Part shown: piece after piece, positions 1-16,527 of the stretch
How the letters are laid out: each line of letters begins with the position of its first letter
Position numbering within the stretch: position 1 is the first letter of the stretch
Origin: an uncultured Aquimarina sp.
GTDB taxonomy: Bacteria; Bacteroidota; Bacteroidia; Flavobacteriales; Flavobacteriaceae
DNA length: 64,000 nucleotides
Direction: 5' to 3'
Assembly (NCBI GenBank): GCA_947498935.1
Contig: CANMMM010000001.1
Coordinates: forward strand, 310,001-374,000
The notes under the pieces: generated by a model
What the model was told of the DNA's origin: nothing
What the model saw: only the letters and a program-made list of their open reading frames with translations
Databases searched by the model: none
Program-made: the position numbers and the translations under genes

Positions 1-2
1 AA

Positions 3-203
3 AACACCAACTTCCTAATTCGAGAAGGAGAGGACTTCCCCTCTTGTCTAAACTGTGATTTCCTTAATCGGTGGAAAAAACGCACCATAGATTTTCTTAG
101 TAATTGTCCCGGGCTCGTTGAAAAAATAAAAACTGGAGTCTATGGAGAAGACGACTTAAAAGATATTGTAGAATACTATAATGATTTCTGTGCTGATCAT
201 TAA
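3..203 (+). CDS. C-terminal end of an unrecognised protein (partial)
   Basis: An open frame enters from the left edge and ends at TAA 201-203, giving 66 C-terminal residues. It is acidic toward its end and holds a Cys-Leu-Asn-Cys pair, a basic Trp-Lys-Lys-Arg patch and a final segment rich in Asp, Glu and Tyr. I do not recognise the family. It converges on the XRE regulator with a gap of about 50 bp. The uninterrupted frame and plausible composition favour a real gene over chance, but without the N-terminal part no function can be given. Confidence 0.55.
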   Translation, partial: NTNFLIREGEDFPSCLNCDFLNRWKKRTIDFLSNCPGLVEKIKTGVYGEDDLKDIVEYYNDFCADH

Positions 204-254
204 AACGAATACAACCCTACAAAGATAATCTCAGACAACCATATTATCTTTTCG

Positions 255-1013
255 TCATACCATTTTAGTTTTTAGCGTCGAAATATCTTCTTCGATACGC
301 TGCAATGAATGCGTAATCGTATCCATTGGAGCAGGTACACGATGATAAAAAACAGTACATACCTTCCATATTTCTTTAACAGCTGATACAGGTACTATCA
401 TAGCATCGATATGCTTATGATCTGCACGCAATACCAGTTGCGCCCCTTCTTGATACATCCTTCTAAAAATAAGTTGTGTATCTGTGACTACCAATACTAG
501 TATCCCATTAGACAATGTTTCGATTTCAGCTAGCGACACATGCACCCCAATCACAATATCATTGGGATAATACCCCTCATCGTACTGTGTCATTTCTAAG
601 TTCGATACTGTATAGCCTCTGTATTCCTTGGTTTCGTCTAATGGGAGCTGCAATACAGGCAACTCATTAATAAAACGTTCCTGATCATACGCCTCTATAT
701 ACTCGGCAGTAGTAGTAGCGGTAATACACGGGATATATGCAAACTGCTCTCTGCGCAAGACCTGCGTATAGGTAGTCAACTCCCCTTTGAAACGCAATAA
801 TTCATTTACCGTGAGCTCGCCAGTGAGCAACGCATCTATTTGTATGCTAAAATAATTAGCTATCTTAATAATTGTGTCGATCTTAGGCTCACTCCTCCCC
901 TCTTCATACGCCCCCAAAGTCCCTCTTTTTAAGTCAAATAGTTCCGCAAAAGCCTGTTGACTCAATCCTTTAACACTACGTATCTTTTTTATATTTTTTC
1001 CAAAAAATGACAT
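255..1013 (-). CDS. XRE-family regulator with a degenerate LexA/S24-like domain
   Basis: A 252-residue DNA-binding regulator. Residues 5-60 form a classic Cro/C1 helix-turn-helix (LSQQAFAELF, then the recognition helix with RGTLGAYEEGR). Residues about 125-230 align by eye with the S24 LexA-like fold common in Bacteroidota XRE proteins, including the closing EIWKV. The motif that normally reads GDSM is here NLEM (residues 138-141), so the catalytic Ser is Glu, and the Lys position reads IFRR. Self-cleavage is therefore unlikely, and the domain probably serves as a dimerisation or ligand module. It is divergent from the PspA/YqiJK/AAA module across a 378-bp spacer carrying repeated TGCTAATTTTA and palindromic ATTAGCTAAT sites, so it is a candidate regulator of that module (inference). 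Confidence 0.85.
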   Translation of the reverse strand: MSFFGKNIKKIRSVKGLSQQAFAELFDLKRGTLGAYEEGRSEPKIDTIIKIANYFSIQIDALLTGELTVNELLRFKGELTTYTQVLRREQFAYIPCITATTTAEYIEAYDQERFINELPVLQLPLDETKEYRGYTVSNLEMTQYDEGYYPNDIVIGVHVSLAEIETLSNGILVLVVTDTQLIFRRMYQEGAQLVLRADHKHIDAMIVPVSAVKEIWKVCTVFYHRVPAPMDTITHSLQRIEEDISTLKTKMV

Positions 1014-1391
1014 TTTTTGCTAATTTTATTTGCAATTATCCGTTTTTATTGTACATTTACACTAACAATATTAGCTAATAGATTTCATTTCTGCTAATTT
1101 TAATAGACAAACCTGTTGTAAAACACTTAATTTTGTGGTTTTACCGTAGGCTGCTACTGTTTTTAGCAATTTCAATCATTCATTAATCATTAACAACAGC
1201 ATACCCATGATCATCATCGCACAATTCATAATCAATTTAGTCGTCAAAGTCTCTGAGAATATTTCCTATTTTTGGCACTAACAGCTACGTATTATCATAG
1301 AAGTGTGTAAAGTGCTTGCAATTAGCTATAAAAATGAAAAACAGCACACCACTTCACGACATAAAAACAACTAACTAATCTATAAACACCT
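1014..1391. promoter_or_regulatory. Divergent control region with candidate XRE operator sites
   Basis: A 378-bp spacer between the XRE gene and the YbjN/PspA module. It holds TGCTAATTTTA twice in the same orientation (1018-1028 and 1092-1102) and a perfect 10-bp palindrome ATTAGCTAAT (1070-1079) between them. All three share the core GCTAAT. The first site overlaps the expected leader of the XRE gene, fitting autoregulation. A -7-like TAATTTTG lies at about 1129-1136 but has no TTG at the usual distance. No gene is seen here; a 24-codon ATG frame near 1208 has no support. Confidence 0.4.
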
Positions 1392-1787
1392 ATGCAAGAT
1401 CATTTTCAACTTGTAAAAGAGTACTTATTACAACTCCGATTCCATATTGCACATGAAAATAAAAAGGAAGGTATCCTAATGGTGAGCAAAGAGAATGATG
1501 GTATCAAAAACCTCATCATCGGAGTAGCACACCCTATTTTGATCATAGAACAATATGTTTTTACGATCCAAAACCAAGAAGCGCTTGTACATAAAAACTT
1601 GCTCCAGAAAAATAGGGATATCATACACGGAGCATTTGTATTGGATGAAACAGGCCAAAAAGTAATTTTTAGAGACACGCTGCAATTAGAAAATCTAGAC
1701 CTCAACGAACTTGAAGGCACACTAAACTCTCTGAGTCTATTATTGAGTGAATATGCGCAGCAAATTATCAATTTTTCAAAATACTAA
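1392..1787 (+). CDS. YbjN-like / type III chaperone-fold protein
   Basis: A 131-residue soluble protein without signal peptide or membrane segment. The alternating alpha/beta layout (helix 1-18, strands around 28-60, helix 75-82, strands 95-105, C-terminal helix 108-128) resembles the YbjN / Tir-chaperone-like fold; the assignment rests on layout, not on a catalytic motif. Such proteins are thought to act as small chaperones or adaptors. It is the first gene of the module, with the pspA start only 4 bp after its stop, which points to a functional link with PspA. Other annotation pipelines might leave it as hypothetical. Confidence 0.65.
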   Translation: MQDHFQLVKEYLLQLRFHIAHENKKEGILMVSKENDGIKNLIIGVAHPILIIEQYVFTIQNQEALVHKNLLQKNRDIIHGAFVLDETGQKVIFRDTLQLENLDLNELEGTLNSLSLLLSEYAQQIINFSKY

Positions 1788-1791
1788 ACAT

Positions 1792-2496
1792 ATGAATTTT
1801 TTTAAACGATTATTTAAGATAGGAGAAGCCGAAGCGAACGCGGCAATTGACAACATGGAAGATCCCATTAAAATGACTGAACAGGGGATCAGAGATATGA
1901 AAAACGATCTAGAAAAAAGCATCGAGGCGCTAGCACAAGTAAAAGCAATGGCTATACGTACTAAAAATGACACTGAAGAAGCGGCTGCTAAGGCAGACGA
2001 TTACCAGCAAAAAGCCATGCTTATCCTAAAAAAAGCACACAATGGCACCCTAGATACTGCTGAAGCGGATCGATTGGCCAAAGAAGCACTGATCAAAAAA
2101 GAAGCAGCAGCACAGCAAGTAGAGAGTAGAAAACAAGAAACCGAAAAATACGAACGCACCGTATCCCAATTAGAAAAAAACGTACACGATATCAAACAAA
2201 ATATCAGTCGATGGGAAAACGAACTCAAAACACTAAAAGCTAGAGTAAAAGTCGCCAGTGCTACCAAAAACGTAAGCAAACAAATGGCTGCTATAGATAG
2301 TGCTAGTACTGTAGCCATGCTAGAACGTATGAAAGAAAAAGTGCAACAAGAAGAAGCTATAGCCGAAGCTTATGGCGATATTGCCAATGCTAGTCAATCG
2401 ATAGATTCGCAACTAGATGAGGCTATCAATGCTACAGAAACCAGTGCCGAAGAGGAGTTATCAGCACTTAAAAAACAGTTAGGATTAGACAGTTAA
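1792..2496 (+). CDS. pspA: PspA/IM30-family membrane-remodelling protein (ESCRT-III superfamily)
   Basis: A 234-residue protein that is almost wholly alpha-helical coiled coil. The N-terminus MNFFKRLFKIGEAEANAAID is the amphipathic helix that lets PspA bind stressed lipid bilayers; the following PIKMTEQGIRDMKNDL segment is the usual PspA signature. Long heptad helices run from about residue 25 to 225. PspA and Vipp1 are known ESCRT-III relatives that form rods or rings and bind the inner membrane under stress. The ATG at 1792 is chosen over an in-frame GTG at 1747 because it gives the canonical amphipathic N-terminus and does not overlap the upstream gene. There is no pspF/pspBC here; the partners are YqiJ/YqiK-like proteins and a large AAA+ ATPase. 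Confidence 0.9.
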   Translation: MNFFKRLFKIGEAEANAAIDNMEDPIKMTEQGIRDMKNDLEKSIEALAQVKAMAIRTKNDTEEAAAKADDYQQKAMLILKKAHNGTLDTAEADRLAKEALIKKEAAAQQVESRKQETEKYERTVSQLEKNVHDIKQNISRWENELKTLKARVKVASATKNVSKQMAAIDSASTVAMLERMKEKVQQEEAIAEAYGDIANASQSIDSQLDEAINATETSAEEELSALKKQLGLDS

Positions 2497-2966
2497 CCTC
2501 TTACAACTATTTGTATGCAATAGAAAGACTATCACAACTTGAAACTGTAGCAAAACCTAATACCCTATTATTTAATATAATCATAGCTGCATGATACTTA
2601 AGATATGGAAAACAGCAAGTCTTATTGCTTTTTCAACCCTAATAAAGAAGTGCTATGATAGAAAATGAGTTAAAAAATCACTTTTTTATAAAAAAATAAC
2701 GTTTAGTAGGGTAACATTTTGATCAAAATTGACATATACTAATGAGTCTTTTTTTGATAGGGTAACAAATGGCCATAATTCATACAAAATAATGCCATGA
2801 ACTATACCGTATTTTCGACTCATAAAACAGCTGCGTTAGGAATCCTAGTTGGAAATCCCACAGTCCGACGCAGTAGGGGCGAGGAATTGGAGCGGATAGT
2901 CCGATCCAAAGAGGGGAAACGCCCTAAACATTAAAAAACAACTAGTAAACCTAAAAAATAAACACA
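2497..2966. other. 470-bp gap inside the module, with one family-1 repeat
   Basis: AT-rich spacer between pspA and the yqiJ-like gene. It contains the short sequence AGGGTAACA twice (about 2708-2716 and 2760-2768) and a family-1 repeat (2833-2924). A 45-codon frame (2797-2934) runs through the repeat but looks accidental. The length suggests that the yqiJ-yqiK part may also have its own promoter. No terminator with a T-run is seen. Confidence 0.4.
2833..2924 (+). repeat. Family-1 dispersed repeat, copy A
   Basis: A 92-bp copy, from GCGTTAGGAATCC to GGGGAAACGCCC, with the internal landmarks AAATCCCACAG, CCGACG, GCGAGGAATTG, AGCGGATAG and CCGATCC. It is the most diverged of the full-length copies. 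It lies 42 bp before the TTG start of the yqiJ-like gene. Confidence 0.85.
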
Positions 2967-3662
2967 TTGGAAGAACTCTTACACATCGCTTTTTCTCCTG
3001 TCAATGCTTTTTTAAGTATCATGTGCTTATTACTGATCCTATATTGGGTATTGACTATTCTTACGGGATTTGACCTCGATTTCTTCGATGTAGAATTCGA
3101 CGCTGCAGCCGATATGGATCTAGATATGGACATGGAGGCTGATATAGATGACTACAATCCAGATGTAGACTTACCACAGAAAAACGTAGAGGCTTCTACA
3201 GATACTGAGGGAGTAGGTGTAAAAATATTGCGCTTCTTCAATTTTGATGAACTGCCACTCATGTTTATGCTTACAGGACTGTTTTTTTCGATGTGGTTTA
3301 TTTCTGTAAATATATCGCATTATTTACAACTACCGAATTGGATAGGGTTTCTCTTACTGATTCCAAACCTAATCATCAGCCTTTTTATCACTAAATTTCT
3401 GACCAAACCAATTGCTAAGGTGTATGCCATGATCAATCATAAGGGAGAAGAGACGATTGATTTTTTAGGAAGACAGTGTATCGTAAAATCGCCTGTGGCG
3501 GGTAATAAACTAGGACAAATAGAAGTCAAGATTCATAACGATGTAATTCTTGTACAAGCCAAAGGATTTAAAGGAGCTACCATCGGCAGTGGCGAAACAG
3601 CCGTGATCGTCAATGTATCGAAAGACAAAAAATATTATCTCATCGAAAAATTTGAATTATGA
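2967..3662 (+). CDS. YqiJ-like OB-fold membrane protein
   Basis: A 231-residue inner-membrane protein. The N-terminus (residues 1-30) reads MEELLHIAFSPVNAFLSI, typical of the YqiJ/NfeD-like family, and holds a first membrane helix; two more lie at about 92-108 and 115-140. Between them is an acidic Asp/Glu/Met-rich stretch (35-65). Residues 160-230 form the OB-fold-like beta domain expected in the cytosol. In E. coli yqiJ is paired with the flotillin yqiK, as here. The start is TTG at 2967, accepted because the family N-terminus begins there. The stop TGA is T3660 plus the first two bases of a family-2 repeat, so insertion of the repeat may have set the C-terminus. Confidence 0.85.
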   Translation: MEELLHIAFSPVNAFLSIMCLLLILYWVLTILTGFDLDFFDVEFDAAADMDLDMDMEADIDDYNPDVDLPQKNVEASTDTEGVGVKILRFFNFDELPLMFMLTGLFFSMWFISVNISHYLQLPNWIGFLLLIPNLIISLFITKFLTKPIAKVYAMINHKGEETIDFLGRQCIVKSPVAGNKLGQIEVKIHNDVILVQAKGFKGATIGSGETAVIVNVSKDKKYYLIEKFEL

Positions 3663-3822
3663 AGTGGTTTAGACTTTTTTGATGCCAGCGAACATCGTAA
3701 GATTTTGTGACCAAATGCAGTATTTTTTTTGTTGCATAGCAGCGCTACGGAACTCAAAAATTACAAAATTTTGGTGCAAAAGATCGTTTTTATAGCAAAT
3801 CGTAAAAAGTGTAAACCACTTC
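3661..3822 (+). repeat. Family-2 inverted-repeat element, copy A
   Basis: A 162-bp element. Ends GAAGTGGTTTAGACTTTTTT and AAAAAGTGTAAACCACTTC are imperfect inverted repeats. The core carries GTTGCATAGCAGCGCTACGG and GCAAAAGATCGTTTTTATAG as in the other copies. It fills the gap between the yqiJ-like gene and the flotillin gene almost completely and supplies GA of the yqiJ-like TGA stop. A flanking target duplication is not clear (TAT on the left, GAT on the right). Confidence 0.85.
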
Positions 3823-3853
3823 GATAAATAACTAATTAAACAACAACTATAAT

Positions 3854-5944
3854 ATGTTAGGAAACACATCACTCATTATCATGGGCGCTTCTGTACTAGT
3901 AGGATTTGGGCTGCTCGTATGGATCATCTCTATGTACAAAAAGATTATCCAAGGAAAGGTATTGGTCAGAACAGGTATGGGAGGTACCAAAGTATTTTTT
4001 AATGCTGGTTTGGTCGTACCCGTACTCCATAAGATGGAAATCATGGACATTTCTGTAAAAAAACTAGAAATCGAACGAACGGGTATGAATGGATTAATCT
4101 GTAAGGATAACATCAGAGCCGATATCAAAGTTGCTTTCTTTGTGCGTGTGAATAAGTCAACTGCGGATATTATCAATGTAGCACAGACTATTGGATGTGC
4201 TAGGGCTTCGGAAATCGATGTATTGCGTAATCTATTTGATGCTAAATTCTCGGAAGCATTAAAAACCGTGGGTAAGAAGTTCGAATTTGTAGAATTATAC
4301 GAAGCTCGTAGGGAGTTTAGAGACGAAATCATTAATGTGATCGGTACCGATTTAAATGGTTATGTACTGGATGATTGTGCTATCGATGATTTAGAGCAGA
4401 CAGCACTAAACTATCTAAAATCAGATAATATTCTAGATGCAGAAGGGATTAAGAAAATTACCGAACTAACGGCGGCTCAGAATATCAAATCAAACCTAAT
4501 CAAGCGCGATGAAGAAAAAATAATCCGTAAGCAAGATGTAGAGGCACAAGAAGCAATTCTAGAACTCGATAAGCAACTTGCCGAAAAGGAAGAGCAGCAG
4601 AAACGCGAAATCGCCAATATCAAAGCGCGTGAAGGAGCGGAAACACTAAAAGTAGCAGAAGAAGAACGACTGAAATCAGAAACGGCTCGTATCGCTACTG
4701 AAGAAAAAGTACAGGTTGCCGAAGAAAACAAAGATCGCCAAGTGATTGTAGCAGCTAAAAACAAACAGCGTACCGAGGCTGTAGAAACCGAACGTGTAGA
4801 AAAAGATCGTGCTTTAGAAGCTACAGAACGCGAGCGTATCGTAACACTGGCACAGATCGAAAAAGAAAAAGTAGTAGAGGTAGAAAAGAAAAACATCCAA
4901 GATGTAATCCGCGATCGAGTAATGCTAGAAAAAGGGGTGGTTCAAGAGCAGGAAAACATGAAGGATATAGAAGCTTTTAAAACAGCAGATCGTGAGAAAC
5001 AAGTAAAAATCACGATTGCCGAAGGGAATGCACAGGAAGACCTGATCAAAACGATTAAAGCTGCTGAGGCAGAAAAAGAAGCCGCTAAGCAAAAAGCGGA
5101 AGAGATGAATATAGAAGCACAAGCTAAAAAAGAAGCTAGTGAAAAAGAAGCAGAAGCTCGTAAAACATTAGCAGAAGCTACTGCCAAGGAAGAGGCTACC
5201 ATCGGTATGTCTGAAGCACAAGTAATGCATGCAAAAGCAGATGCTAATGAACGTGAGGGGTTAGTAGAAGCTAATATCATAGAGAAAAAAGCGAAGGCAG
5301 AAGCAGCCGGTATATTAGCCAAAGCAGAAGCTCAGAAACAAGAAGGAATCGCCGAGGCAGAAGTTATCAAAGAAAAAGCACTGGCAGAAGCTTCTGGAAA
5401 TAAAGAAATCGCCCTAGCTGAAGCAGCAGGAATCGAAGAGAAAGCAGAAGCGATGAAGAAACTCGATGGTGTAGGAAAAGAGCATGAAGAGTTTAAACTA
5501 CGCTTAGATAAAGAACTACAGGTAGAACTGGCTGAAATCAATATCCAAAAAGAAATTGCCTTTGCACAAGCAGATGTGATCGGAGCGGCACTAAAAGCAG
5601 CGAATATAGATATTGTAGGAGGTGAAACGATGTTCTTTGAGCAAATTATCGGTCAGATCACCAAAGCCAAAGGCGTGGATCGATTGGTAAAACATTCTGA
5701 CACCGTTACGGATGTTAAAAATGCTATTTTAGGTAGTGATGATGTAAAAGGTAATTTATTATCTAAAGTCAAAGAGTTTGCTACGGAATACGGCATCTCT
5801 TCTGAGGATATTAAAAATCTGACCATTGCAAATCTACTGGTGGATCTAAAACAAAAGGCTACAAATGACGAAGAAACTACCTTGTTTGGTAATCTTTTTA
5901 ATCTAGCCAAAGGACTCGGATTGTCTAACAAAAAACTTTCGTAA
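3854..5944 (+). CDS. YqiK-type flotillin (SPFH/Band-7 protein)
   Basis: A 696-residue membrane-scaffold protein. A single N-terminal membrane helix (residues 5-26, LGNTSLIIMGASVLVGFGLL) is followed by an SPFH domain (about 30-200, with VRTGMGGTKVFF and KDNIRADIKVAFFVRV). A long Ala/Glu/Lys-rich coiled coil with repeated AEA motifs runs from about 215 to 570, and a C-terminal globular part of about 120 residues follows. It is longer than E. coli YqiK, mainly through the coiled coil. Flotillins oligomerise and organise membrane microdomains. The YqiJ-like gene directly upstream is the usual partner. Many reverse-strand frames overlap it but only mirror its biased codon use. Confidence 0.92.
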   Translation: MLGNTSLIIMGASVLVGFGLLVWIISMYKKIIQGKVLVRTGMGGTKVFFNAGLVVPVLHKMEIMDISVKKLEIERTGMNGLICKDNIRADIKVAFFVRVNKSTADIINVAQTIGCARASEIDVLRNLFDAKFSEALKTVGKKFEFVELYEARREFRDEIINVIGTDLNGYVLDDCAIDDLEQTALNYLKSDNILDAEGIKKITELTAAQNIKSNLIKRDEEKIIRKQDVEAQEAILELDKQLAEKEEQQKREIANIKAREGAETLKVAEEERLKSETARIATEEKVQVAEENKDRQVIVAAKNKQRTEAVETERVEKDRALEATERERIVTLAQIEKEKVVEVEKKNIQDVIRDRVMLEKGVVQEQENMKDIEAFKTADREKQVKITIAEGNAQEDLIKTIKAAEAEKEAAKQKAEEMNIEAQAKKEASEKEAEARKTLAEATAKEEATIGMSEAQVMHAKADANEREGLVEANIIEKKAKAEAAGILAKAEAQKQEGIAEAEVIKEKALAEASGNKEIALAEAAGIEEKAEAMKKLDGVGKEHEEFKLRLDKELQVELAEINIQKEIAFAQADVIGAALKAANIDIVGGETMFFEQIIGQITKAKGVDRLVKHSDTVTDVKNAILGSDDVKGNLLSKVKEFATEYGISSEDIKNLTIANLLVDLKQKATNDEETTLFGNLFNLAKGLGLSNKKLS

Positions 5945-6000
5945 GCCTATCAGGCAGTAACAATGATTTTCTGTAAAGATATACGAATCAAAAGACCCTA

Positions 6001-6037
6001 GCACCTTCTCCCCCATGCTGAGAAGGTGCAGCATGGG
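6001..6037. promoter_or_regulatory. Two interleaved hairpins ahead of a small membrane-protein gene
   Basis: Arm A GCACCTTCTC (6001-6010) pairs perfectly with A' GAGAAGGTGC (6020-6029). Arm B CCCATGCT (6012-6019), which is the loop of A/A', pairs perfectly with B' AGCATGGG (6030-6037). The order A-B-A'-B' means that the two hairpins exclude each other, or at best form a partial pseudoknot because the connecting loops are 0-1 nt. The site is 57 bp after the flotillin stop and 30 bp before the next ATG, a position suited to attenuation or mRNA processing. There is no T-run directly after it. Confidence 0.6.
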
Positions 6038-6066
6038 AATTGTTTAATTTTAAAAAAAAAGAAACT

Positions 6067-6372
6067 ATGGGAGGAGAAGGAGCAATGATGCAAGCTATTC
6101 ATTCCACGAGAAATAATAGCCGAAGAAATCAAAGAGATACATTTAAAACTGTAGAAAGCAGTAAAAAAAGTGACGGTATAAAGGTCGAACCTATTAGCGA
6201 AGCAGCTTTGGAAGCAATTCGTATCAAAATCAAACAGCAAAAAAACGTAGAAAATATACAGATGTGTAGTATCATCGGTATCGCTATTGCTATTGTTGGC
6301 GCATTATATTACGGGGTATCACAGCTCAATGGAAATGATGCGACTCATTTCTTTTCGATGTTTGGAAGGTAA
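6067..6372 (+). CDS. Small single-span membrane protein of the flotillin/AAA module
   Basis: A 101-residue protein of unknown family. A polar, positively charged N-terminal two-thirds (STRNNSRRNQRDTF) precedes one hydrophobic helix at about residues 68-88 (MCSIIGIAIAIVGALYYGV) and a short tail, so it is likely a tail-anchored-type inner-membrane protein with the N-terminus inside. ATG 6067 is preferred; a TTG at 6040 would add MFNFKKKET, which looks like a possible amphipathic start and cannot be excluded. It lies between the flotillin and the lipoyl-like gene in the same orientation, suggesting a structural partner in the membrane complex. Confidence 0.65.
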   Translation: MGGEGAMMQAIHSTRNNSRRNQRDTFKTVESSKKSDGIKVEPISEAALEAIRIKIKQQKNVENIQMCSIIGIAIAIVGALYYGVSQLNGNDATHFFSMFGR

Positions 6373-6401
6373 CAGTATCTAATCGACGCGTATATTAATT
6401 T

Positions 6402-6490
6402 GCGTTAGGGATTGCAGTGAAAATCCCACAGCCCGACGATAGGAGGTGCGAGGAATTGTAGCGGAAAGCCCGACCCTTGTGGTAACGCCC
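6402..6490 (+). repeat. Family-1 dispersed repeat, copy B
   Basis: An 89-bp copy from GCGTTAGGGATTG to GGTAACGCCC, with AAATCCCACAGCCCGACGAT, GTGCGAGGAATTG, GCGGAAAGCCCGACCC. It lies 29 bp after the stop of the preceding small gene and 23 bp before the ATG of the 46-residue protein, inside the module. Confidence 0.9.
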
Positions 6491-6513
6491 TAAACCAATA
6501 AAGTAATACTACT

Positions 6514-6654
6514 ATGGAAATTATAGAAACTGTAGTTGTAGGTATAATTCGATGCTTATGGGAACTTCTGATAGAAATAATTTTTGAAGGTATTCTAAGA
6601 GGTATATGGATAGGAATAAAAGGAATATATAGTCAATTCAAAAAGCTACTATGA
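6514..6654 (+). CDS. 46-residue amphipathic membrane peptide
   Basis: ATG 6514 opens a 46-codon frame that begins MEIIETVVVGIIRCLWELL and ends FKKLL, rich in Ile, Leu and Trp with regularly spaced Glu, Arg and Lys. The pattern predicts one or two amphipathic or membrane-inserted helices. Its TGA overlaps the ATG of the following lipoyl-like gene (ATGA at 6651-6654), a sign of translational coupling and the main reason to accept so short a gene. No known family is recognised. The position suggests an accessory subunit of the PspA/flotillin/AAA complex. Confidence 0.6.
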   Translation: MEIIETVVVGIIRCLWELLIEIIFEGILRGIWIGIKGIYSQFKKLL

Positions 6655-7070
6655 GTAACTTAATTACACTGCCTAATCTACAGTCTACCTCATACTATGA
6701 GATGTATAAAAAAGAGTTTATTATTCAGGAAGTCCAATGGTTCAAAAATGTAGGAGACTCAATTACTAAGGGAGAGGTTTTTTGTGCAATTGAAAACGAC
6801 GAGGTAACGTATGAATTTGAGTCTTTATATACGGGTGAGGTATTGTATATCCATACGAACAACGTGATAAGAATAGGTGATATCATCATGGTGATTGGAA
6901 CTGCAGGAGAAAACTATAAAAAAACAATGGAGGAATACTACCTAGAACTCAAAGACAATACTGCATATCAGCAAAGCGTGCCTATGGAAATACGCAACAA
7001 ACCTTATGTACCCGTCATCAAAAAAGATAATGCTTTTTGGAATCGCATCAAAGCAATTTTCAATCTATAA
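6651..7070 (+). CDS. Lipoyl/biotinyl-like domain protein lacking the modified lysine
   Basis: A 139-residue protein. Residues 1-85 follow the hammerhead fold of lipoyl/biotinyl carrier domains: ITLPNL at the start, FIIQEVQWFKNVGDSITKGE as the first half, then the turn AIENDEVTYEFESLYTG and GDIIMVIG at the end. In true carriers the turn reads ETDKA or AMKM; here the Lys position is Glu or Val (ENDEVT), so lipoylation or biotinylation is not possible. The fold is therefore probably an interaction module, as in membrane-fusion proteins. The C-terminal 50 residues are charged. It is coupled to the 46-residue peptide and lies 44 bp before the AAA+ gene. Confidence 0.6.
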   Translation: MSNLITLPNLQSTSYYEMYKKEFIIQEVQWFKNVGDSITKGEVFCAIENDEVTYEFESLYTGEVLYIHTNNVIRIGDIIMVIGTAGENYKKTMEEYYLELKDNTAYQQSVPMEIRNKPYVPVIKKDNAFWNRIKAIFNL

Positions 7071-7114
7071 GAAGAAAAAGGTAGTTACACCACTACAAAA
7101 CTAGTAAACAATTC

Positions 7115-10100
7115 ATGGAAGAACATAACACAAACGCAATGCAATTAGACGGTGGGACGTATGAGATTATCCAAAACCGTTTGCAGAAACATAAAAGCGA
7201 GCTACAAACACGCTTGTCGGAATTGAATGAGGCGCGTAAAACGGTGTTTGGTAGTATCGAGACACAATTGATAGCGAATAACCGTATCAATACCGAGAAT
7301 AATTGTATCGCACGTGATATTGTAACGATTGGTGATTATTGCATTTTTGGATATAATGTCCATTTTGGATTGCGTACAGAAATCAACTTACAGGATGTAT
7401 TTAGTATCTACCAATATACAGAGGATCATTTTGCTTCGCAATCTTTAGATCAACTCAATGATAGTGCCTTTATCAATGATTTTACGAATCTGTATAAATA
7501 CTATCGAAATACGATTTTTTCTAAATTTGCGATTATAGGCAATTACCTGCACATGGTATTTCAGCTCAGTGATAGTGTGAGCGACATTAAGACCTTTAAA
7601 TGGTTGATCAATGAAAATACACTTACGTATGTAGACAATCGCAGTGAGCATGAGTTTACATTCCCGAAGCAATTCGAATTTGATTGGCAAGAGGTTTCTA
7701 GAGATATGCATCGCTATGGTACGCATCCGCATATCTCCATCTTAGACAAGGTTTTTGTAGAAACTGTAGGTGGTGACCTGACCATTAAGATAGAAGACAA
7801 TACCGATGATGGCAAAGGAATTTATAACGAAGCGGTATCCCTAGCAGATCAAACCTTGGATGATGGGCAATATCGTTTTGCCGATTTAGGTAACTTGATC
7901 CCACTAGAGATCAAACCATTTCAGGAAAGTGCTCGCTATTTTGTGTACAATCATAAGATACGAGAGGTTAAAAAAATAGATGCGATCCAAGATGCGTGTG
8001 TACTCCTACCTGATGCCCAAGGGATTATTTTTCCGAATGGCTACTATTTACAATCTGGCGATTTTAAGTTATTTACCAATGAGGCCACTAATGTAAAATT
8101 TCAGAAAAAAATTTCCTCTCCTAATGGCGAAGATTATTTTTATGTTTTTTACGAAAGTGAAAAAGGACTCTATATCCTGATGACCTACAATGTCATTGAT
8201 CAAGAGGTAAAAACACCGATTATTTGTAATGGATTTACCATTTTAGAAAATGGAGCGCTTTGCTATTTTAAAACGGAGGATGCACAAACGAAACATCATG
8301 TGATCCAGATATGGCAAACGCCATTTATCAAGGGAGACGCGCTACCTTCTGAACATACGGATAACTTATTATACAAAATAGGCAATAAGGATATTGTAAA
8401 GGCGATGGCAGAGTGTCATGCATTGATCACACTTCTGAACAAAGAGGATAGCTATGACGGCTTATATGATGATCTGTCTAAATTTTCGAATGAGATTATA
8501 GATAGTTATTATTGGATTAGAGAAGAAGACACCTGCCGACTGGATGTACCACTGGGTGAAATCAACCAAGCTGCCAATGCTGCTATCGATGAATTCGAAA
8601 AAGTAGTACAGCTACGTAAAACGGCTGAAAATACGACACAAGAAACCAACGAAAAAGCTACGAGTGTTTTTAACAAAATCAAAAGTAGTTCTTTTCGATC
8701 TATTGAGGATTTTGTAACTGTATTGTCGCAATTGCGCACCTTACGCGGCGAGGTGATCGCACTGCATGATATTCGGTATGTAGCTACTGATTTTATCCAA
8801 GAATTAGAGGCTGAAATCGCTACGCAGACTGAGAAAATCTCGCAACGATGTGTGCAATTCTTATTAGACGATAAGGCACTGCTCCCCTACCACGATCGTG
8901 TAGCCGAAAAACAACAAGCATTAGATGGTATAAAAAAGGTAATCGATGCCAAAAAACTAGAAACCGAGGTCACACAGATCGCTACTGATTTAGAAATGCT
9001 GATCGATATTGTATCGAATCTAGCGATTGAAGACACCTCTCAATCTACTAAAATCATCGATGCTATTTCATTGATTTTTTCGAGTATCAATCAGCTAAAG
9101 GCGGGTATCAAAAACAGCATCAAATCACTGGGATCGAAAGAAGCTAGTGCCGAATTTGTAGCCCAGTTAAAATTAGTAGACCAGAGCATTATCAACTATT
9201 TAGATATTGCCAATACGCCTGAAAAAACAGATGAATTACTGAATAAGGTATCGGTACAGTTAGAAGACTTAGAAGGGCGTTTTGCCGATTTCGAAGATTT
9301 CATCTCGCAAATTATAGAAAAAAGAGAGGAAGTCTACAATGCTTTCGAGACGCGTAAAAACAGCTTGATCGAAGCGCGTAATAAAAAGGCGGTTGCGCTA
9401 GAAAAGGCGGCTACTCGTATTCTAAAAGGAGTAACTAAAAAAGCCCTGAGCTTTGATAGCATCGCAGCGATCAATGGGTATTTTGCAGGAGACCTAATGA
9501 TCAATAAATTACGAGACCTGATCGCCGAATTGATAGCGCTGGAGGATATTGGAAAAGCAGAAACGATAGAAACTGCTCTAAAAGTTGCTAAGGAAGATGC
9601 TACTCGAAAACTAAAAGACAAACAGGATCTGTATGAAGATGGAGAAAACATCATCAAACTAGGGAAACACAAATTTGGAGTCAATAAACAACCGCTAGAC
9701 CTGACCATTGTCTACAAAGACGAAACGCTACAGTACCACCTAACAGGCACTGATTTTTATCAGACTATTAATAATGATGTATTGCTAGCATCTAAAAAAT
9801 ACTGGGATCAGGAATTGATTTCTGAAAATGAAACGGTATACAGAGCTGCGTATTTAGCATATACCATTTTTACAACTGCTACTGAGAGCCTCATCGATTA
9901 TAGCGAAACCGAATTGCTAGCACTGGTACAAGCAGAAAGCAGCAAAAACTATGCTGCAGGCTATGTAAAGGGCGTACATGATGTGGATGCCGCTAAAATT
10001 TTGCACACACTGATTCATACAGATCACAACTTGGGGTTACTGCGTTTTGCGCCGAGTATTAGAGCACATACACAGTATTTTTGGAATCACTTAGATCCAG

Positions 10101-12001
10101 AACAACAAACAGCATGGGAACAGCAAATAAAGATTGCAGGACAGGTACAAAGTGTGTTTCCTGACAGCCTCGAATACCAAAAGATCATTGCGCAATTAGC
10201 AGCAGTGATTCAGGAATCTGACGTATTTCTATCCTATGCAACATCCGATAGTACTGCTACATATGCTACTAAATGGGCCACTTATTTATTTGAAGAACTC
10301 AAAAAAGGAAATACCTTCTGTAGTAGTCAAGTAGCCCACGAACTCTATGATCACTTCATTACTACACTACAAAAGAAAAAGGTATATACTGCTTTTAAAA
10401 AATCATTAGGGCTCGATACGGAATTACACCAAACCAGTGCCGAGACGATTGCGCTGGCAAAACAATGGGTAGCGTCCTACATACGCGCTACACATCCAGA
10501 AGCTACAGCCTATATTGATGAGGTGGTATGTATCTTATTATTTAAAGCTGCTGTGACTGAACAGATCATTCATAGCAGTCCATCACAGCAGATTAGCGGA
10601 TTGATGGGGAGTCACCCGACCATCACTGACGGTGTTTATGAGTTTAATTACCATGATTTTATAACACTACTCACCCATTTTACTACGGTAGAAGTCCCTG
10701 CTTTTGCCGAGTATCGAGCCACGAAACACACTGTCACAGACCAGTTAAAGAAATCTTTAAAACTCACCGAGTTTATACCTCGGGTATTATCATCATTTGT
10801 ACGGAACAAACTGATCGATCAGGTATACCTTCCGCTATTTGGAGATAATCTAGCCAAACAGCTAGGAAGTGTAGGCGATACCAAACGAACGGATCGTATG
10901 GGGATGTTACTACTCATCTCGCCACCAGGATATGGAAAAACAACCTTGATGGAATATATGGCAAATCGTCTGGGATTGATCTTTATGAAAATTAATGGCC
11001 CTGCGATTGGACACGAAGTCACGTCAGTAGATCCGATGGCAGCAACCAATGCCGCAGCAAGAGAAGAATTGAAAAAATTGAATCTTGCTTTTGAAATGGG
11101 GAATAATGTCATGTTGTATTTAGACGATATACAGCATTGCAATCCTGAGTTTTTGCAGAAATTCATTTCACTAGCAGATGGTACTCGAAAAATAGAAGGA
11201 GTCTATAACGGTACTCCTAAGACCTATGATCTACGGAGTAAGAAATTCTGTGTGATTATGGCAGGAAATCCCTATACCGAGAGTGGTGAAAAATTTCAGA
11301 TCCCTGATATGCTCGCCAACCGTGCGGATATTTATAATCTGGGAGATATTATTGGAGATACTGCTCACTTATTTAAGCTTAGTCTCATCGAAAATGCATT
11401 GACATCGAATCCTGTACTACATCAATTAAGCAGTAAGAATTTTGATGATGTATATCAGCTTATTGAGGCAGTATCTACAGGCAATCAGGATAGCATGGAG
11501 CTACAAGGAAACCATACGAAGCAAGAGGTACAAGAATACCTAGCGGTATTAGAAAAAGTGGTGCGCATTAGAGACACGGTAATGCTCGTAAATGAGACCT
11601 ATATCAAATCTGCTGCAATGGAGGATGCTTATAGAACGGAGCCTTCTTTTAAATTACAAGGATCGTATCGAGATATGAGTAAATTAGTAGCCAAAGTAGT
11701 GCCTATTATGAATGAGCAAGAGTTAGAAACGCTTTTGGCATCTCACTACGAAAATGAATCCCAAACCCTTACGAGTGCCGCAGAAGCCAACTTACTAAAA
11801 TACAAAGAACTGACAGACACCCTTACAACTACTGAACAATCACGATGGGAGGTAATGAAAGAGAGTTTTGTAAAAAACAATACCCTGAAAGGTTTCGGCG
11901 CTCAGAACGAAATGGCGCAAGTATTGGCACAAATGATGCAGTTTAGCGAACATTTGGCAGGGATACAGGAAGTATTAAAAAAAGGAATCGAAAAAAAGTA
12001 A
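7115..12001 (+). CDS. Giant AAA+ ATPase, 'DNA repair ATPase' annotation group
   Basis: A 1628-residue protein. An N-terminal helix (10-50) is followed by a mostly beta region (about 55-430), extended coiled coils (about 480-860), a mixed region, and a C-terminal AAA+ core. Walker A is SPPGYGKTTL at about 1268-1277, Walker B is MLYLDDIQHCNPEF at about 1333-1346, and sensor 1 is CVIMAGNPYTESG with a later LANRAD arginine. The core is MoxR-like in style. Walker B has DD where most AAA+ proteins have DE. Databases call such proteins DNA repair ATPases, but nothing here concerns DNA. The PspA, flotillin and YqiJ-like neighbours suggest remodelling of membrane scaffolds, perhaps in the way Vps4 acts on ESCRT-III (inference). 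An in-frame ATG at 7139 is an alternative start. Confidence 0.85.
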   Translation: MEEHNTNAMQLDGGTYEIIQNRLQKHKSELQTRLSELNEARKTVFGSIETQLIANNRINTENNCIARDIVTIGDYCIFGYNVHFGLRTEINLQDVFSIYQYTEDHFASQSLDQLNDSAFINDFTNLYKYYRNTIFSKFAIIGNYLHMVFQLSDSVSDIKTFKWLINENTLTYVDNRSEHEFTFPKQFEFDWQEVSRDMHRYGTHPHISILDKVFVETVGGDLTIKIEDNTDDGKGIYNEAVSLADQTLDDGQYRFADLGNLIPLEIKPFQESARYFVYNHKIREVKKIDAIQDACVLLPDAQGIIFPNGYYLQSGDFKLFTNEATNVKFQKKISSPNGEDYFYVFYESEKGLYILMTYNVIDQEVKTPIICNGFTILENGALCYFKTEDAQTKHHVIQIWQTPFIKGDALPSEHTDNLLYKIGNKDIVKAMAECHALITLLNKEDSYDGLYDDLSKFSNEIIDSYYWIREEDTCRLDVPLGEINQAANAAIDEFEKVVQLRKTAENTTQETNEKATSVFNKIKSSSFRSIEDFVTVLSQLRTLRGEVIALHDIRYVATDFIQELEAEIATQTEKISQRCVQFLLDDKALLPYHDRVAEKQQALDGIKKVIDAKKLETEVTQIATDLEMLIDIVSNLAIEDTSQSTKIIDAISLIFSSINQLKAGIKNSIKSLGSKEASAEFVAQLKLVDQSIINYLDIANTPEKTDELLNKVSVQLEDLEGRFADFEDFISQIIEKREEVYNAFETRKNSLIEARNKKAVALEKAATRILKGVTKKALSFDSIAAINGYFAGDLMINKLRDLIAELIALEDIGKAETIETALKVAKEDATRKLKDKQDLYEDGENIIKLGKHKFGVNKQPLDLTIVYKDETLQYHLTGTDFYQTINNDVLLASKKYWDQELISENETVYRAAYLAYTIFTTATESLIDYSETELLALVQAESSKNYAAGYVKGVHDVDAAKILHTLIHTDHNLGLLRFAPSIRAHTQYFWNHLDPEQQTAWEQQIKIAGQVQSVFPDSLEYQKIIAQLAAVIQESDVFLSYATSDSTATYATKWATYLFEELKKGNTFCSSQVAHELYDHFITTLQKKKVYTAFKKSLGLDTELHQTSAETIALAKQWVASYIRATHPEATAYIDEVVCILLFKAAVTEQIIHSSPSQQISGLMGSHPTITDGVYEFNYHDFITLLTHFTTVEVPAFAEYRATKHTVTDQLKKSLKLTEFIPRVLSSFVRNKLIDQVYLPLFGDNLAKQLGSVGDTKRTDRMGMLLLISPPGYGKTTLMEYMANRLGLIFMKINGPAIGHEVTSVDPMAATNAAAREELKKLNLAFEMGNNVMLYLDDIQHCNPEFLQKFISLADGTRKIEGVYNGTPKTYDLRSKKFCVIMAGNPYTESGEKFQIPDMLANRADIYNLGDIIGDTAHLFKLSLIENALTSNPVLHQLSSKNFDDVYQLIEAVSTGNQDSMELQGNHTKQEVQEYLAVLEKVVRIRDTVMLVNETYIKSAAMEDAYRTEPSFKLQGSYRDMSKLVAKVVPIMNEQELETLLASHYENESQTLTSAAEANLLKYKELTDTLTTTEQSRWEVMKESFVKNNTLKGFGAQNEMAQVLAQMMQFSEHLAGIQEVLKKGIEKK

Positions 12002-12004
12002 TAT

Positions 12005-12056
12005 AGATACTCATCCCTCATTGCTTATAAATATGAGGGATGAGTATCTTTTTTTT
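12005..12056 (+). terminator. Strong intrinsic terminator of the AAA+ module
   Basis: AGATACTCATCCCTCAT (12005-12021) and ATGAGGGATGAGTATCT (12033-12049) form a perfect 17-bp stem with an 11-nt loop, followed by an unbroken run of T to 12056. It begins a few bases after the ATPase stop and separates the module from the convergent polyamine genes. Confidence 0.92.
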
Positions 12057-12111
12057 GTAGTACTATAGCGTACATTTATCCACAACTATCTTGTGATCAT
12101 TTTTATAACTG

Positions 12112-13086
12112 CTACATCCCTAACAGATAACCAAATATCAATGGCGCTACGATGGTGGCATCACTTTCGATAATAAACTTAGGAGTCTCTATATCGAGTT
12201 TACCCCAAGTTATCTTTTCATTAGGTACTGCTCCTGAATACGACCCATAACTTGTAGTAGAATCACTGATCTGGCAGAAGTAGTTCCAGAATGGCGTATC
12301 TGTTCGTTCTAGGTCTTGGTATAACATCGGCACTACACAGATTGGAAAATCTCCTGCAATCCCTCCTCCTATCTGAAAAAAACCAATCCCATCCCTTGAA
12401 TTCTCAGTGTACCAATCGGCTAAAAAGGTCATGTATTCTATCCCAGATTTCATGGTACTGGCTTTTAACTCTCCCTTCATCACATAACTGGCAAAAATAT
12501 TACCCATCGTACTATCCTCCCAACCTGGAACGACCATTGGCAAATTGGCTTTTGCTGCTGCATACATCCATGAGTCTTCGATTGGAATTTCATAATACTG
12601 CTCTAAGACGCCCGATAGCAGCAATTTGTACATAAATTCATGAGGAAAAAATCGTTCTCCTGCATCTTCTGCGTCTTTCCATATTTTGAATACATGTTCT
12701 TGTAATCTCCTAAAGGCTTCTTCTTCTGGGATGCAGGTATCGGTTACCCGATTCAATCCTTTTTCTAGCAAATCCCATTCTTGCTGCGGTGTTAGATCGC
12801 GGTATTCTGGTACGCGCTTATAATGGCTATGCGCTACTAGGTTCATAATATCTTCTTCGAGATTTGCACCCGTACAGGAAATGATATGTACTTTTTGTTC
12901 GCGTATCATTGCTGCAAAAATCTTTCCTAGCTCAGCAGTGCTCATTGCTCCTGCCAATGATACGAGCATTTTGCCTCCTTGATGGAGTTGAGATTCGTAT
13001 GCCTTAGCTGCATCGACGAGTGTAGCTGCATTAAAATGCAGAAAATATGTTTCGATAAACTTCGAGATGTCTCCTTTGTTTTTCAT
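12112..13086 (-). CDS. Deoxyhypusine synthase-like enzyme (probable polyamine synthase)
   Basis: A 324-residue NAD-dependent aminobutyl-transferase of the deoxyhypusine synthase family. Visible family signatures are LVSLAGAMSTAELGKIF, SCTGANLEEDI, the GGGIAGDFPI stretch, and the catalytic-lysine region ITWGKLDIE followed by ESDATIVAPLIFG. Bacteria have no eIF5A in the eukaryotic sense, and several bacterial homologues make homospermidine or a related polyamine from spermidine or putrescine. It lies 54 bp downstream of agmatinase and after arginine decarboxylase in the same orientation, which supports a polyamine role. The exact substrate and product cannot be read from the sequence. Confidence 0.85.
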   Translation of the reverse strand: MKNKGDISKFIETYFLHFNAATLVDAAKAYESQLHQGGKMLVSLAGAMSTAELGKIFAAMIREQKVHIISCTGANLEEDIMNLVAHSHYKRVPEYRDLTPQQEWDLLEKGLNRVTDTCIPEEEAFRRLQEHVFKIWKDAEDAGERFFPHEFMYKLLLSGVLEQYYEIPIEDSWMYAAAKANLPMVVPGWEDSTMGNIFASYVMKGELKASTMKSGIEYMTFLADWYTENSRDGIGFFQIGGGIAGDFPICVVPMLYQDLERTDTPFWNYFCQISDSTTSYGSYSGAVPNEKITWGKLDIETPKFIIESDATIVAPLIFGYLLGM

Positions 13087-13140
13087 CGTATTTTGTGTTA
13101 TTGCTATTTTTTTAGTGAAGTGATTTATGAAAGTTGTTTT

Positions 13141-14019
13141 TTACCTATCGAGCGCTGTTTCTTTATCTTCGAATTTATAGCTGAGCATCTTATAAAATAA
13201 TTTAGCTGCAGCAAAATCTGAGGGCTTACTTGTAGGATTTGGACATAATTCTACTATATCAAAACCGACTACATTTTTTTCGTCGAATACTTTTCTGAGA
13301 AATTCCAAGGTTTCATACCATAGTAACCCTCCTGGTTCTGGAGTTCCTGTAGCAGGTACTACCGAAGGATCAAAAGCGTCTAAATCGAAAGTAATATAGA
13401 CCGTATCTGTCATTAATTCAATAGCATTATCCATCCAATACGTATCATTGACCATCTGATGTGCAAAAAACACCTGTTCTTGATTCATCACTGTGTTTTC
13501 AGAGACATCCATACTACGAATCCCTACTTGTATCAGATTCGTTTGTTCGTTGGCCTCATACATGGCACATGCATGATTGCATGCAGACCCATTATATGTT
13601 TTTCTAAGATCTGTATGTGCATCTATTTGTAACACCGTAAGATTATCAAAACATTCATTAAATGCTCGAATAGCACCTATAGAAATTGAATGCTCTCCTC
13701 CTATGAGAGTTACTAATTTATTTCTTTTAATGTGTTTTTTAGTCGCTACATATACCGCTGCTACCATGGCTTCTGGAGTTTCATCTTCGGTAATCGGGTC
13801 TACTAATGCGATCCCTTTAGTATATACTTCATATCCTGTTTCTATATCATATAGTTCCATATTTTCTGAGGCAAGCAAAAAGGCTTCTGGGCCTTTGTCT
13901 GCTCCTTTGCCCCATGTACTTGTTCCATCATATGGCACAGGGATGATGACTATTTTTGATTGCTCGTATACAGCATTTACTGCTGGTATTCCTGCATAGG
14001 TACGGCTTCTTTTCATCAT
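13141..14019 (-). CDS. speB: Agmatinase (ureohydrolase)
   Basis: A 292-residue Mn-dependent enzyme that hydrolyses agmatine to putrescine and urea. All ureohydrolase metal motifs are present: GGEHSISIG, QIDAHTDLR and TFDLDAFDPSVVPATGTPEPGG (the last split here as DLDAFDPS and TGTPEPGG). Length is normal for the family. It lies between arginine decarboxylase upstream and the deoxyhypusine synthase-like gene downstream, so arginine is converted to agmatine and then putrescine within one cluster. Two consecutive ATGs (14019 and 14016) are possible starts. Confidence 0.93.
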   Translation of the reverse strand: MMKRSRTYAGIPAVNAVYEQSKIVIIPVPYDGTSTWGKGADKGPEAFLLASENMELYDIETGYEVYTKGIALVDPITEDETPEAMVAAVYVATKKHIKRNKLVTLIGGEHSISIGAIRAFNECFDNLTVLQIDAHTDLRKTYNGSACNHACAMYEANEQTNLIQVGIRSMDVSENTVMNQEQVFFAHQMVNDTYWMDNAIELMTDTVYITFDLDAFDPSVVPATGTPEPGGLLWYETLEFLRKVFDEKNVVGFDIVELCPNPTSKPSDFAAAKLFYKMLSYKFEDKETALDR

Positions 14020-16496: not shown

Positions 16497-16527
16497 TTAA
16501 AGAAATAAATCTATTTTAGTGTGCTGT

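What the first reader, a model, noticed from the sequence alone, without database searches (positions are those of the whole stretch)
1392..12001. PspA-YqiJ-flotillin-giant AAA+ module as a possible bacterial ESCRT-like machine
Eight co-directional genes place an ESCRT-III-fold protein (PspA) with a flotillin, its YqiJ-like partner, two small membrane proteins, a lipoyl-like adaptor and a 1628-residue AAA+ ATPase, ended by a strong terminator. The classical Psp partners are absent. In eukaryotes ESCRT-III is recycled by the AAA+ protein Vps4, so a dedicated ATPase beside PspA suggests an analogous remodelling cycle on flotillin domains. The ATPase is usually labelled DNA repair, which the context contradicts. 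Parts (PspA, YqiJK) are known; the complete assembly with the lipoyl-like and 46-residue proteins is little described to my knowledge.
Basis: partly seen in the sequence, partly recalled or inferred. Interest (0 to 1): 0.78.

Follow-up and report, generated by a model that had tools for sequence, protein, structure and literature searches.

The report
Flotillin-ATPase operon with PspA cassette
This is a real bacterial gene cluster, already described in outline, that pairs a membrane-raft (flotillin) scaffold with a large motor protein and, in some lineages, with a membrane-repair protein related to the eukaryotic ESCRT-III system; comparison suggests the motor belongs to the flotillin first and to the repair protein only optionally.

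Summary
The eight genes are real and correctly placed; the unnamed first gene is a CesT/Tir-type chaperone. The core (CesT-PspA-YqiJ-flotillin-AAA+ with propeller and coiled coil) and the ESCRT-like idea are in print (Ravi 2024, PMC11237479). Added here: (1) YqiJ-YqiK-ATPase is the near-constant unit: YqiK in every locus whose contig reaches it, YqiJ in all but one Streptomyces plasmid. (2) CesT-PspA is optional: 15 assemblies with the triad and full upstream DNA have no PspA match. Yet in Bacteroidota PspA is usually adjacent (10 of 10 in a phylum sample; 28 of 30 in the genus). (4) The ATPase has invariant catalytic residues and a pre-sensor-1 hairpin; fold matches favour MoxR-type proteins, sequence matches p97/RuvB-type; no MIT domain. 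(5) The 46-aa gene is private, the lipoyl-like gene lacks the acceptor lysine and was not found beside the ATPase elsewhere, the 110-aa gene is genus-restricted. Best reading: a flotillin-scaffold remodelling ATPase with PspA as a regulated add-on.

The parts
255..1013 (-).
   Evidence: HTH_19 E 1.5e-12, Peptidase_S24 20.7 bits (below cut-off 23.3); present in 38 of 38 loci with PF22550-type CesT and PspA; Ser position reads E and Lys position R in the window
1017..1035 (.). 19-bp palindrome TTGCTAATTTTATTTGCAA, probable operator of the regulator
   Evidence: exact in window; with up to 2 mismatches 0.44 expected by chance per window. At most 1 mismatch in the intergenic region of 34 of 38 loci, 4 hits elsewhere in those loci. 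Pattern taken from an alignment that included the window
1392..1787 (+). CesT/Tir-type chaperone (131 aa)
   Evidence: PF22550 E 3.8e-57
1792..2496 (+). PspA/IM30 protein (ESCRT-III superfamily)
   Evidence: PF04012 E 8e-44; only match in genome
2967..3662 (+). YqiJ-like (NfeD2-type) membrane protein
   Evidence: homologue set: YqiJ_N in 9 of 41 members; YuaF 2k14 E 0.055 with the profile (weak)
3854..5944 (+). YqiK-like SPFH/flotillin protein (696 aa)
   Evidence: homologue set: Band_7 in 8 of 36 members, best 9.3e-11; next to the ATPase in every locus whose contig reaches it
6040..6372 (+). 110-aa small protein with an apparent membrane segment (by eye), genus-restricted accessory
   Evidence: 24 of 74 genomes incl. 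own, all in the genus; in the YqiK-ATPase slot
6514..6654 (+). 46-aa hydrophobic ORF, no relative found
   Evidence: one weak match with a stop inside in 73 other genomes; overlaps the next start
6651..7070 (+). lipoyl-domain-like 139-aa protein without acceptor lysine
   Evidence: Biotin_lipoyl 1.5e-9; K replaced by E in the alignment to PDH E2; no match in the 89 loci scanned
7115..12001 (+). 1628-aa ATPase: beta-propeller (about 50-405), helical/coiled-coil (about 415-840), variable middle, C-terminal AAA+ (about 1228-1530)
   Evidence: K1275, D1337, D1338, N1385, R1403 invariant in 91 of 91 aligned sequences
12005..12056 (+). intrinsic terminator
   Evidence: 17-bp stem (12005-12049) plus seven U, z -7.6

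Best explanation
The fixed unit is a membrane machine of three proteins: a YqiJ/NfeD2-type membrane protein, a YqiK-type SPFH (flotillin) scaffold, and a dedicated giant AAA+ ATPase whose beta-propeller and coiled coil are its likely docking arms. The AAA+ core has a pre-sensor-1 hairpin and is probably nearer MoxR-type than Vps4-type motors. It most likely uses ATP to remodel or release the flotillin scaffold or proteins held in it, as FtsH works with HflK/C. In many Bacteroidota the unit is joined to a stress cassette: an XRE/S24-like regulator with a probable operator, a CesT-type chaperone that probably holds PspA, and PspA, which is recruited to the scaffold to patch or remodel the inner membrane. 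Shown: gene content, linkage, conserved active-site residues, optionality of PspA, regulator and palindrome conservation. Inferred: physical complex, docking roles, substrate, repression, membrane repair.
For: YqiK beside the ATPase: 46 of 48 genome-contig loci, the other 2 cut by contig ends; 9 of 9 further Bacteroidota loci; 27 of 27 Planctomycetota loci; 12 of 12 plasmid-collection records. YqiJ: 44 of 48, the other 4 cut by contig ends; 9 of 9; 26 of 27 plus one partial hit at a contig end (L155); 11 of 12. PspA with CesT: 27 of 48; 15 of the rest have full upstream DNA and no PF04012 match in the assembly. Thirteen of those 15 form one clade (FastTree support 1.0), nested among PspA-bearing sequences with 0.995 and 0.984 on the next nodes; the two I compared block by block (L022, L045) are as similar to the window as PspA-bearing ones. 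Regulator in 38 of 38 CesT-PspA loci, palindrome in 34 of 38. SPFH protein YdjI is required to localise PspA in B. subtilis (PMC8581546, abstract). In P. aeruginosa, loss of the CesT-fold BacA raises the other Bac proteins 6.1- to 13.5-fold (PMC10948618, passages).
Against: No physical interaction or ATPase activity was tested. In Bacteroidota the link to PspA is strong (10 of 10 and 28 of 30). In one genus member (G630) PspA and the ATPase are both missing while the regulator and CesT remain, which fits a closer PspA-ATPase bond than 'optional' implies. Several PspA-less assemblies are metagenome bins and their completeness was not told. E. coli has YqiJK in one operon (PMC2636767, passages) but no DUF3686 match (control), so the scaffold does not need the ATPase everywhere. 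Deleting the bac SPFH gene of P. aeruginosa had only slight effects (PMC13086221, passages). On the motor type: PDB sequence-profile hits are led by NVL, Rix7 and p97 (E 2.4e-4 onward, mostly the Walker A stretch), and fold-search E-values for several AAA+ clades lie within about tenfold.
Confidence: 0.5

Rival explanations
1. One reading: the ATPase is a functional Vps4 counterpart that recycles PspA filaments on flotillin domains.
For: Adjacent PspA in 10 of 10 DUF3686 genomes of a 395-genome Bacteroidota sample and 28 of 30 in the genus, against 1 of 13 genus members without the ATPase having a strong PspA match. Joint absence in G630. PDB sequence-profile hits led by classic AAA proteins. 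Ravi 2024 makes a similar proposal.
Against: Fifteen assemblies with the triad have no PspA match; two PspA-less ATPases compared are not relaxed; pre-sensor-1 hairpin and NorQ/CbbQ among the best fold matches, Vps4 not among the 50 shown of 243 with E up to 0.001; the MIM-like PspA tail is not specific to ATPase-linked PspAs; 2 of 30 Planctomycetota genomes with the ATPase have PspA within 10 kb.
Confidence: 0.22
2. A MoxR-type assembly chaperone (like NorQ or CbbQ) that activates an unknown membrane enzyme or complex on a flotillin platform; PspA is a parallel stress partner.
For: NorQ and CbbQ among the best fold matches; Pfam AAA_5 slightly ahead of AAA.
Against: Sequence-profile hits favour p97/RuvB-type proteins. 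No shared gene beyond the triad: largest shared family 3 of 15 PspA-less loci upstream and 6 loci downstream. A VWA-domain partner is recalled as typical of this family; none was looked for by profile.
Confidence: 0.12
3. A DNA-repair ATPase, as the database label says.
For: Pfam and record names; RuvB models among weak sequence matches.
Against: Constant membrane-protein neighbours; the linked S24-like regulator lacks the self-cleavage residues; AAA+ with a propeller.
Confidence: 0.03
4. A mobile defence or conflict module: patchy, sometimes on plasmids, with a regulator.
For: Patchy distribution (10 of 395; 30 of 43 in the genus); 12 plasmid-collection records, several of them chromosome-sized.
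Against: PADLOC matches are generic HTH models, a short IetA Walker A match (E 4.3e-4) and coiled-coil JetC matches to PspA; no match in 50,697 phage records at E 1e-5.
Confidence: 0.05

Closest known systems
CesT/Tir-PspA + band-7/flotillin + YqiJ + AAA+ (beta-propeller, coiled coil) operons of Ravi et al. 2024 (PMC11237479; section 19 read, passages of others)
   Different: What I saw of that text does not mention the divergent XRE/S24-like regulator or its palindrome, the absence of PspA from whole assemblies that keep the triad (it suggests PspA encoded elsewhere), or the hairpin and fold matches of the ATPase
Pseudomonas aeruginosa bac operon (bacABCDEF; PMC2587700, PMC10948618, PMC13086221; passages)
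   Same: YjfI/CesT-fold protein, PspA, short NfeD, SPFH protein in one operon by RT-PCR
   Different: DUF2170-type CesT, putative sigma-54 site; the passages I saw do not say what BacE and BacF are, so presence of the ATPase there is not established here
Band-7 proteins next to pspA in Bacteroidota and other phyla (PMC9239133, passages)
   Same: PspA-flotillin neighbourhood already reported for the phylum
   Different: No AAA+ partner in the passages I saw
B. subtilis pspA-ydjGHI (PMC8581546, abstract and passages)
   Same: An SPFH protein localises PspA at the membrane
   Different: No AAA+ partner in what I saw
FtsH-HflKC (recalled; PMC13220708 seen in a listing with the start of its abstract)
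   Same: SPFH scaffold paired with a AAA+ motor
   Different: FtsH is a protease; no protease domain was found in this ATPase
ESCRT-III/Vps4
   Same: ESCRT-III-fold protein near a AAA+ ATPase
   Different: No MIT domain found, pre-sensor-1 hairpin, PspA dispensable; ESCRT systems with both genes are held to be confined to archaea and eukaryotes (PMC10936438, passages)

Membership tests
CesT/Tir-PspA-flotillin-YqiJ-AAA+ operon (Ravi group 1) | CesT/Tir-like gene followed by PspA | tested here: met
   PF22550 and PF04012 hits, adjacent
[quoted passage not shown]
   by homologue sets; no direct Pfam hit of the window proteins
CesT/Tir-PspA-flotillin-YqiJ-AAA+ operon (Ravi group 1) | AAA+ ATPase with coiled coil and beta-propeller | tested here: met
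   models and fold hits
Vps4 | MIT domain | tested here: not met
   no Pfam MIT match at E 0.1; N-terminal half models as propeller and coiled coil; residues 850-1228 not matched to anything specific
Vps4 | classic AAA core without pre-sensor-1 hairpin (recalled definition) | tested here: not met
   hairpin strands 1359-1364 and 1367-1372 between Walker B and sensor 1 in the model; contrary sign: sequence-profile hits led by classic AAA proteins, mostly over Walker A
Vps4 | acts on an ESCRT-III-fold partner | not testable with these tools
   partner absent from 15 assemblies
ESCRT-III superfamily (PspA) | PspA_IM30 domain | tested here: met
   E 8e-44
MoxR-type AAA+ | AAA_5-like core, pre-sensor-1 hairpin | tested here: inconclusive
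   hairpin present and NorQ/CbbQ among best fold matches; Pfam AAA_5 and AAA score alike; sequence-profile hits favour p97/RuvB
LexA-type SOS repressor (linked regulator) | Ser-Lys self-cleavage dyad | tested here: not met
   window reads E and R; Ser position is S in L112 but its Lys position is R; L113-L116 have a different C-terminal part (dyad motif recalled)
Lipoylated carrier domain | acceptor lysine in the hairpin turn | tested here: not met
   K replaced by E in the alignment to PDH E2

The most novel reading that the evidence does not exclude
A further kind of SPFH-AAA+ pairing: a flotillin scaffold with its own MoxR-like giant ATPase as a membrane-domain remodeller, to which different stress effectors are docked, PspA under a private regulator in one lineage and none in others; where PspA is present it would be a bacterial ESCRT-III-fold polymer driven by a non-Vps4 motor.
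Probability: 0.27. Interest if true: 0.65.

Novelty: new member of a known kind. Interest (0 to 1): 0.42.

Why it matters
Whether an ATPase plays the Vps4 part for PspA or Vipp1 is stated to be unclear (Liu 2021, PMC8281802, passages). This locus gives a defined candidate and natural controls: relatives with the same ATPase and no PspA, relatives with the PspA cassette and no ATPase (L185-L187), and an apparent deletion remnant (L193). It also questions a 'DNA repair' label and points to flotillin, not PspA, as the ATPase's constant partner.

Tried and rejected
Lipoyl-like protein as adaptor: no match in the 89 loci scanned (the 27 loci were not scanned for it). In 74 genomes, 71 gave matches, most in E2-sized ORFs (about 390-570 aa; identity as E2 not tested), a few in short ORFs whose neighbours I did not fetch. 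Rejected as a conserved part.

The 46-aa ORF: one weak match with a stop inside in 73 other genomes. Rejected as a conserved part.

MIM-like PspA tail as ATPase dock: a motif like LxxLKxx(L/M) is seen by eye, not counted, in ATPase-linked PspAs and in 30 PspAs from genomes of the phylum sample without the ATPase. Those 30 are the loci returned, out of 154 such genomes. No specific support.

Conserved replacement for PspA upstream of the triad in 15 PspA-less loci: largest shared family in 3 loci. Downstream of the ATPase: largest shared family in 6 loci.

YqiJ and YqiK: no Pfam hit for the window proteins, solved through homologue sets. PDB by sequence for YqiK: none for the single protein, QmcA E 0.019 with the profile over the coiled-coil part, not used. 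Rfam at the gathering threshold on 1-20000: nothing. Promoter and terminator scans gave no more sites than shuffles.

My PspA profile, built from these loci, missed the divergent PspA near the module in G444 that PF04012 found, so 2 of 12 for the plasmid-collection records is a lower bound.

Library searches (held open-access papers only): DUF3686, 0 papers; PspA + flotillin + YqiK + AAA, 0; at least two of 'DNA repair ATPase', SPFH, YqiJ, 2 papers, neither holding 'DNA repair ATPase'.

Rows dropped before counts: L031 and L035 (no or little upstream DNA), L020 and L057 (contig ends in YqiK), L038 (contig edge; its assembly has CesT-PspA at another contig's end, L117), L044 (contig edge) from the PspA tally. 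L057's assembly has no PspA match; L044's has one below the cut-off. Sequences of 1400 aa or less were left out of the ATPase alignment, under 1550 aa out of the tree. L152 was left out of A1 and A3. G486 and G576 were not fetched among the 30 Planctomycetota genomes; L126 (G486) shows YqiK beside the ATPase.
Full report
What is there. Eight co-directional ORFs fill 1392-12001. ORF1 is a CesT/Tir-type chaperone, ORF2 PspA, ORF7 lipoyl-like, ORF8 the 1628-residue DUF3686/DUF7902/AAA+ protein. ORF3 and ORF4 have no Pfam hit of their own. Their homologue sets contain YqiJ_N (9 of 41 members) and Band_7 (8 of 36), so YqiJ and YqiK are right by homology. A 17-bp stem with seven U ends the run. Transcription as one unit is not shown: 470 bp separate PspA from YqiJ, dispersed repeats sit in three gaps, and a hairpin lies at 6012-6037.

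Already known. Ravi et al. 2024 (PMC11237479; section 19 read in full, passages of others) describe CesT/Tir-PspA with a band-7/flotillin protein, a AAA+ ATPase with coiled coil and beta-propeller, and YqiJ. They note abbreviated operons without PspA and propose ESCRT-like remodelling. Popp et al. 2022 (PMC9239133, passages) report band-7 genes next to pspA in Bacteroidota. The finding is therefore a member of a described kind. The P. aeruginosa bac operon (PMC10948618, PMC2587700, PMC13086221; passages) shares the first four proteins. What BacE and BacF are is not said in the passages I saw. Deleting its SPFH gene had slight effects.

What is constant. In 48 loci from genome contigs (analysed) YqiK precedes the ATPase in 46 and YqiJ in 44; the missing ones are cut by contig ends. 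Nine further Bacteroidota loci have both. Of 27 Planctomycetota loci, 27 have YqiK and 26 a clear YqiJ, the last (L155) a partial hit at a contig end. In 12 plasmid-collection records, several of them chromosome-sized, YqiK is present in 12 and a YqiJ match in 11. PspA with CesT is in 27 of the 48, never one without the other. Fifteen loci with full upstream DNA lack it, and none of those 15 assemblies has a PF04012 match at E 1e-3; five controls with the cassette all do. Several of the 15 are metagenome bins of untold completeness; L022, L023 and L030 are named strains. Thirteen of the 15 are Flavobacteriaceae and form one clade (FastTree support 1.0) inside PspA-bearing sequences (next nodes 0.995 and 0.984). 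The two compared block by block (L022, L045) show no relaxation. In Planctomycetota, 30 of 199 genomes have the ATPase, 7 of these 30 have no PspA match, and 2 have PspA within 10 kb (G559, G444). In the plasmid-collection records PspA was found within the fetched flank in 2 of 12, a lower bound.

What ties PspA in. In an evenly drawn sample of 395 Bacteroidota, 10 have DUF3686 and all 10 have an adjacent CesT-PspA; 164 of the 395 have some PspA match. In the genus (43 genomes) 30 have DUF3686. Of these, 28 have PspA on the same contig within 8 kb, one has it on another contig of a 55%-complete genome, and one has none. Of the 13 without DUF3686, one has a strong PspA match. These genomes are related and the sets overlap, so the counts are not independent. 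In G630 neither DUF3686 nor PspA is found in the genome, while the regulator, CesT and the 110-aa gene remain and no YqiJ or YqiK match lies in the 13 kb around them (L193); I read this as a joint loss. Conversely the regulator-CesT-PspA cassette occurs in genomes without DUF3686 (L185-L187). In L187 the ORFs that follow resemble Ravi's second group by order and length only.

The overlooked regulator. A divergent gene at 255-1013 (minus) encodes an XRE protein with an S24-like domain. A relative at E < 1e-20 lies beside CesT in 38 of 38 loci with PF22550-type CesT and PspA, and in none of the other loci of that set. That set includes pQBR103 (L069), whose CesT is of the DUF2170 type. A palindrome TTGCTAAT-N3-ATTTGCAA lies at 1017-1035 and, with at most one mismatch, in the intergenic region of 34 of 38 loci. 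The pattern was chosen from an alignment that included the window, and with two mismatches allowed 0.44 matches per window are expected by chance. In the window the Ser and Lys positions of the S24 dyad read E and R; L112 keeps a Ser, and L113-L116 differ in this part. SOS control is therefore unlikely. That this protein represses the operon is inferred.

The ATPase. K1275, D1337, D1338, N1385 and R1403 are invariant in 91 of 91 aligned sequences and R1519 in 90, so it is very probably active. The model of residues 850-1628 (pLDDT 85.5, pTM 0.71) shows a beta-hairpin between Walker B and sensor 1. The first fold matches are NorQ, ClpC and CbbQ, then MCM, ClpA, Lon and RuvB. Vps4 is not in the 50 shown of 243 with E up to 0.001; Rix7 and a Ycf2-FtsHi motor are. 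Against this, a sequence-profile search of the PDB is led by NVL, Rix7 and p97 (E 2.4e-4 onward), then RuvB, mostly over the Walker A stretch, and NCBIfam gives RuvB and CDC48 models weakly. I therefore claim 'no MIT domain, hairpin present, probably MoxR-like', not membership of MoxR. Clade definitions are recalled. The N-terminal half models as propeller and coiled coil (pLDDT 85.1). PspA's tail motif looks general, not specific to ATPase-linked PspA.

Accessory genes. The gap between YqiK and the ATPase runs from 18 bp to about 2.5 kb; it is longest in Aquimarina, with changing small genes. The 110-aa family is found in 24 of 74 genomes, all in the genus. The 46-aa ORF has no convincing relative. 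The lipoyl-like protein lacks the acceptor lysine, and I did not find it beside the ATPase elsewhere.

Mechanism. Most likely the ATPase works on the flotillin/YqiJ scaffold, with the propeller and coiled coil as docks. PspA, chaperoned by CesT and controlled by the XRE regulator, is an effector recruited to it under envelope stress, as SPFH protein YdjI localises PspA in B. subtilis (PMC8581546, abstract).

Change of odds. On checking, the result, which speaks against the MoxR-like assignment, had been left out. With it told, I lowered the best explanation from 0.55 to 0.5 and the novel reading from 0.3 to 0.27, and raised the Vps4-like rival from 0.2 to 0.22.

Noticed in passing
window 2872-2907, 3699-3831, 6399-6482 and copies at about 16342, 24184, 29782, 39385, 48603, 54480, 61013: Families of dispersed, partly palindromic intergenic repeats; three copies sit in gaps of this operon; no Rfam match at the gathering threshold in 1-20000.
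   Followed up: partly
window 12112-15602 (minus): Three genes that look like polyamine biosynthesis (deoxyhypusine/homospermidine synthase-like, agmatinase-like, arginine decarboxylase-like; by eye, no family search) converge on the operon; Ravi links PspA to polyamines. Within 3 kb downstream of the ATPase the largest family shared by other loci is in 6 loci and is a different protein.
   Followed up: partly
L193 (G630:C1:325000-338000): Apparent natural deletion: regulator, CesT and the 110-aa gene remain; PspA and the ATPase are absent from the genome, YqiJ and YqiK from this stretch.
   Followed up: partly
L069 (pQBR103 82452-107326): YjfI-PspA, rhomboid, DUF2491, DUF350, DUF1190, glutathionylspermidine synthase, YqiJ-like, SPFH and ATPase in one run, joining two of Ravi's operon groups.
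   Followed up: no
L151/L194 (G559:C89): Two PspA-like genes directly upstream of the triad and a third downstream; no CesT or XRE match of this type there.
   Followed up: no
L012, L024, L033, L043, L056 upstream of YqiK: A second, short YqiK-like ORF of about 215 residues precedes the full-length one.
   Followed up: no
slot between YqiK and ATPase in Aquimarina loci: Recurrent small genes that look like GIY-YIG and DUF559/Vsr-type nucleases (by eye) among the changing inserts.
   Followed up: no
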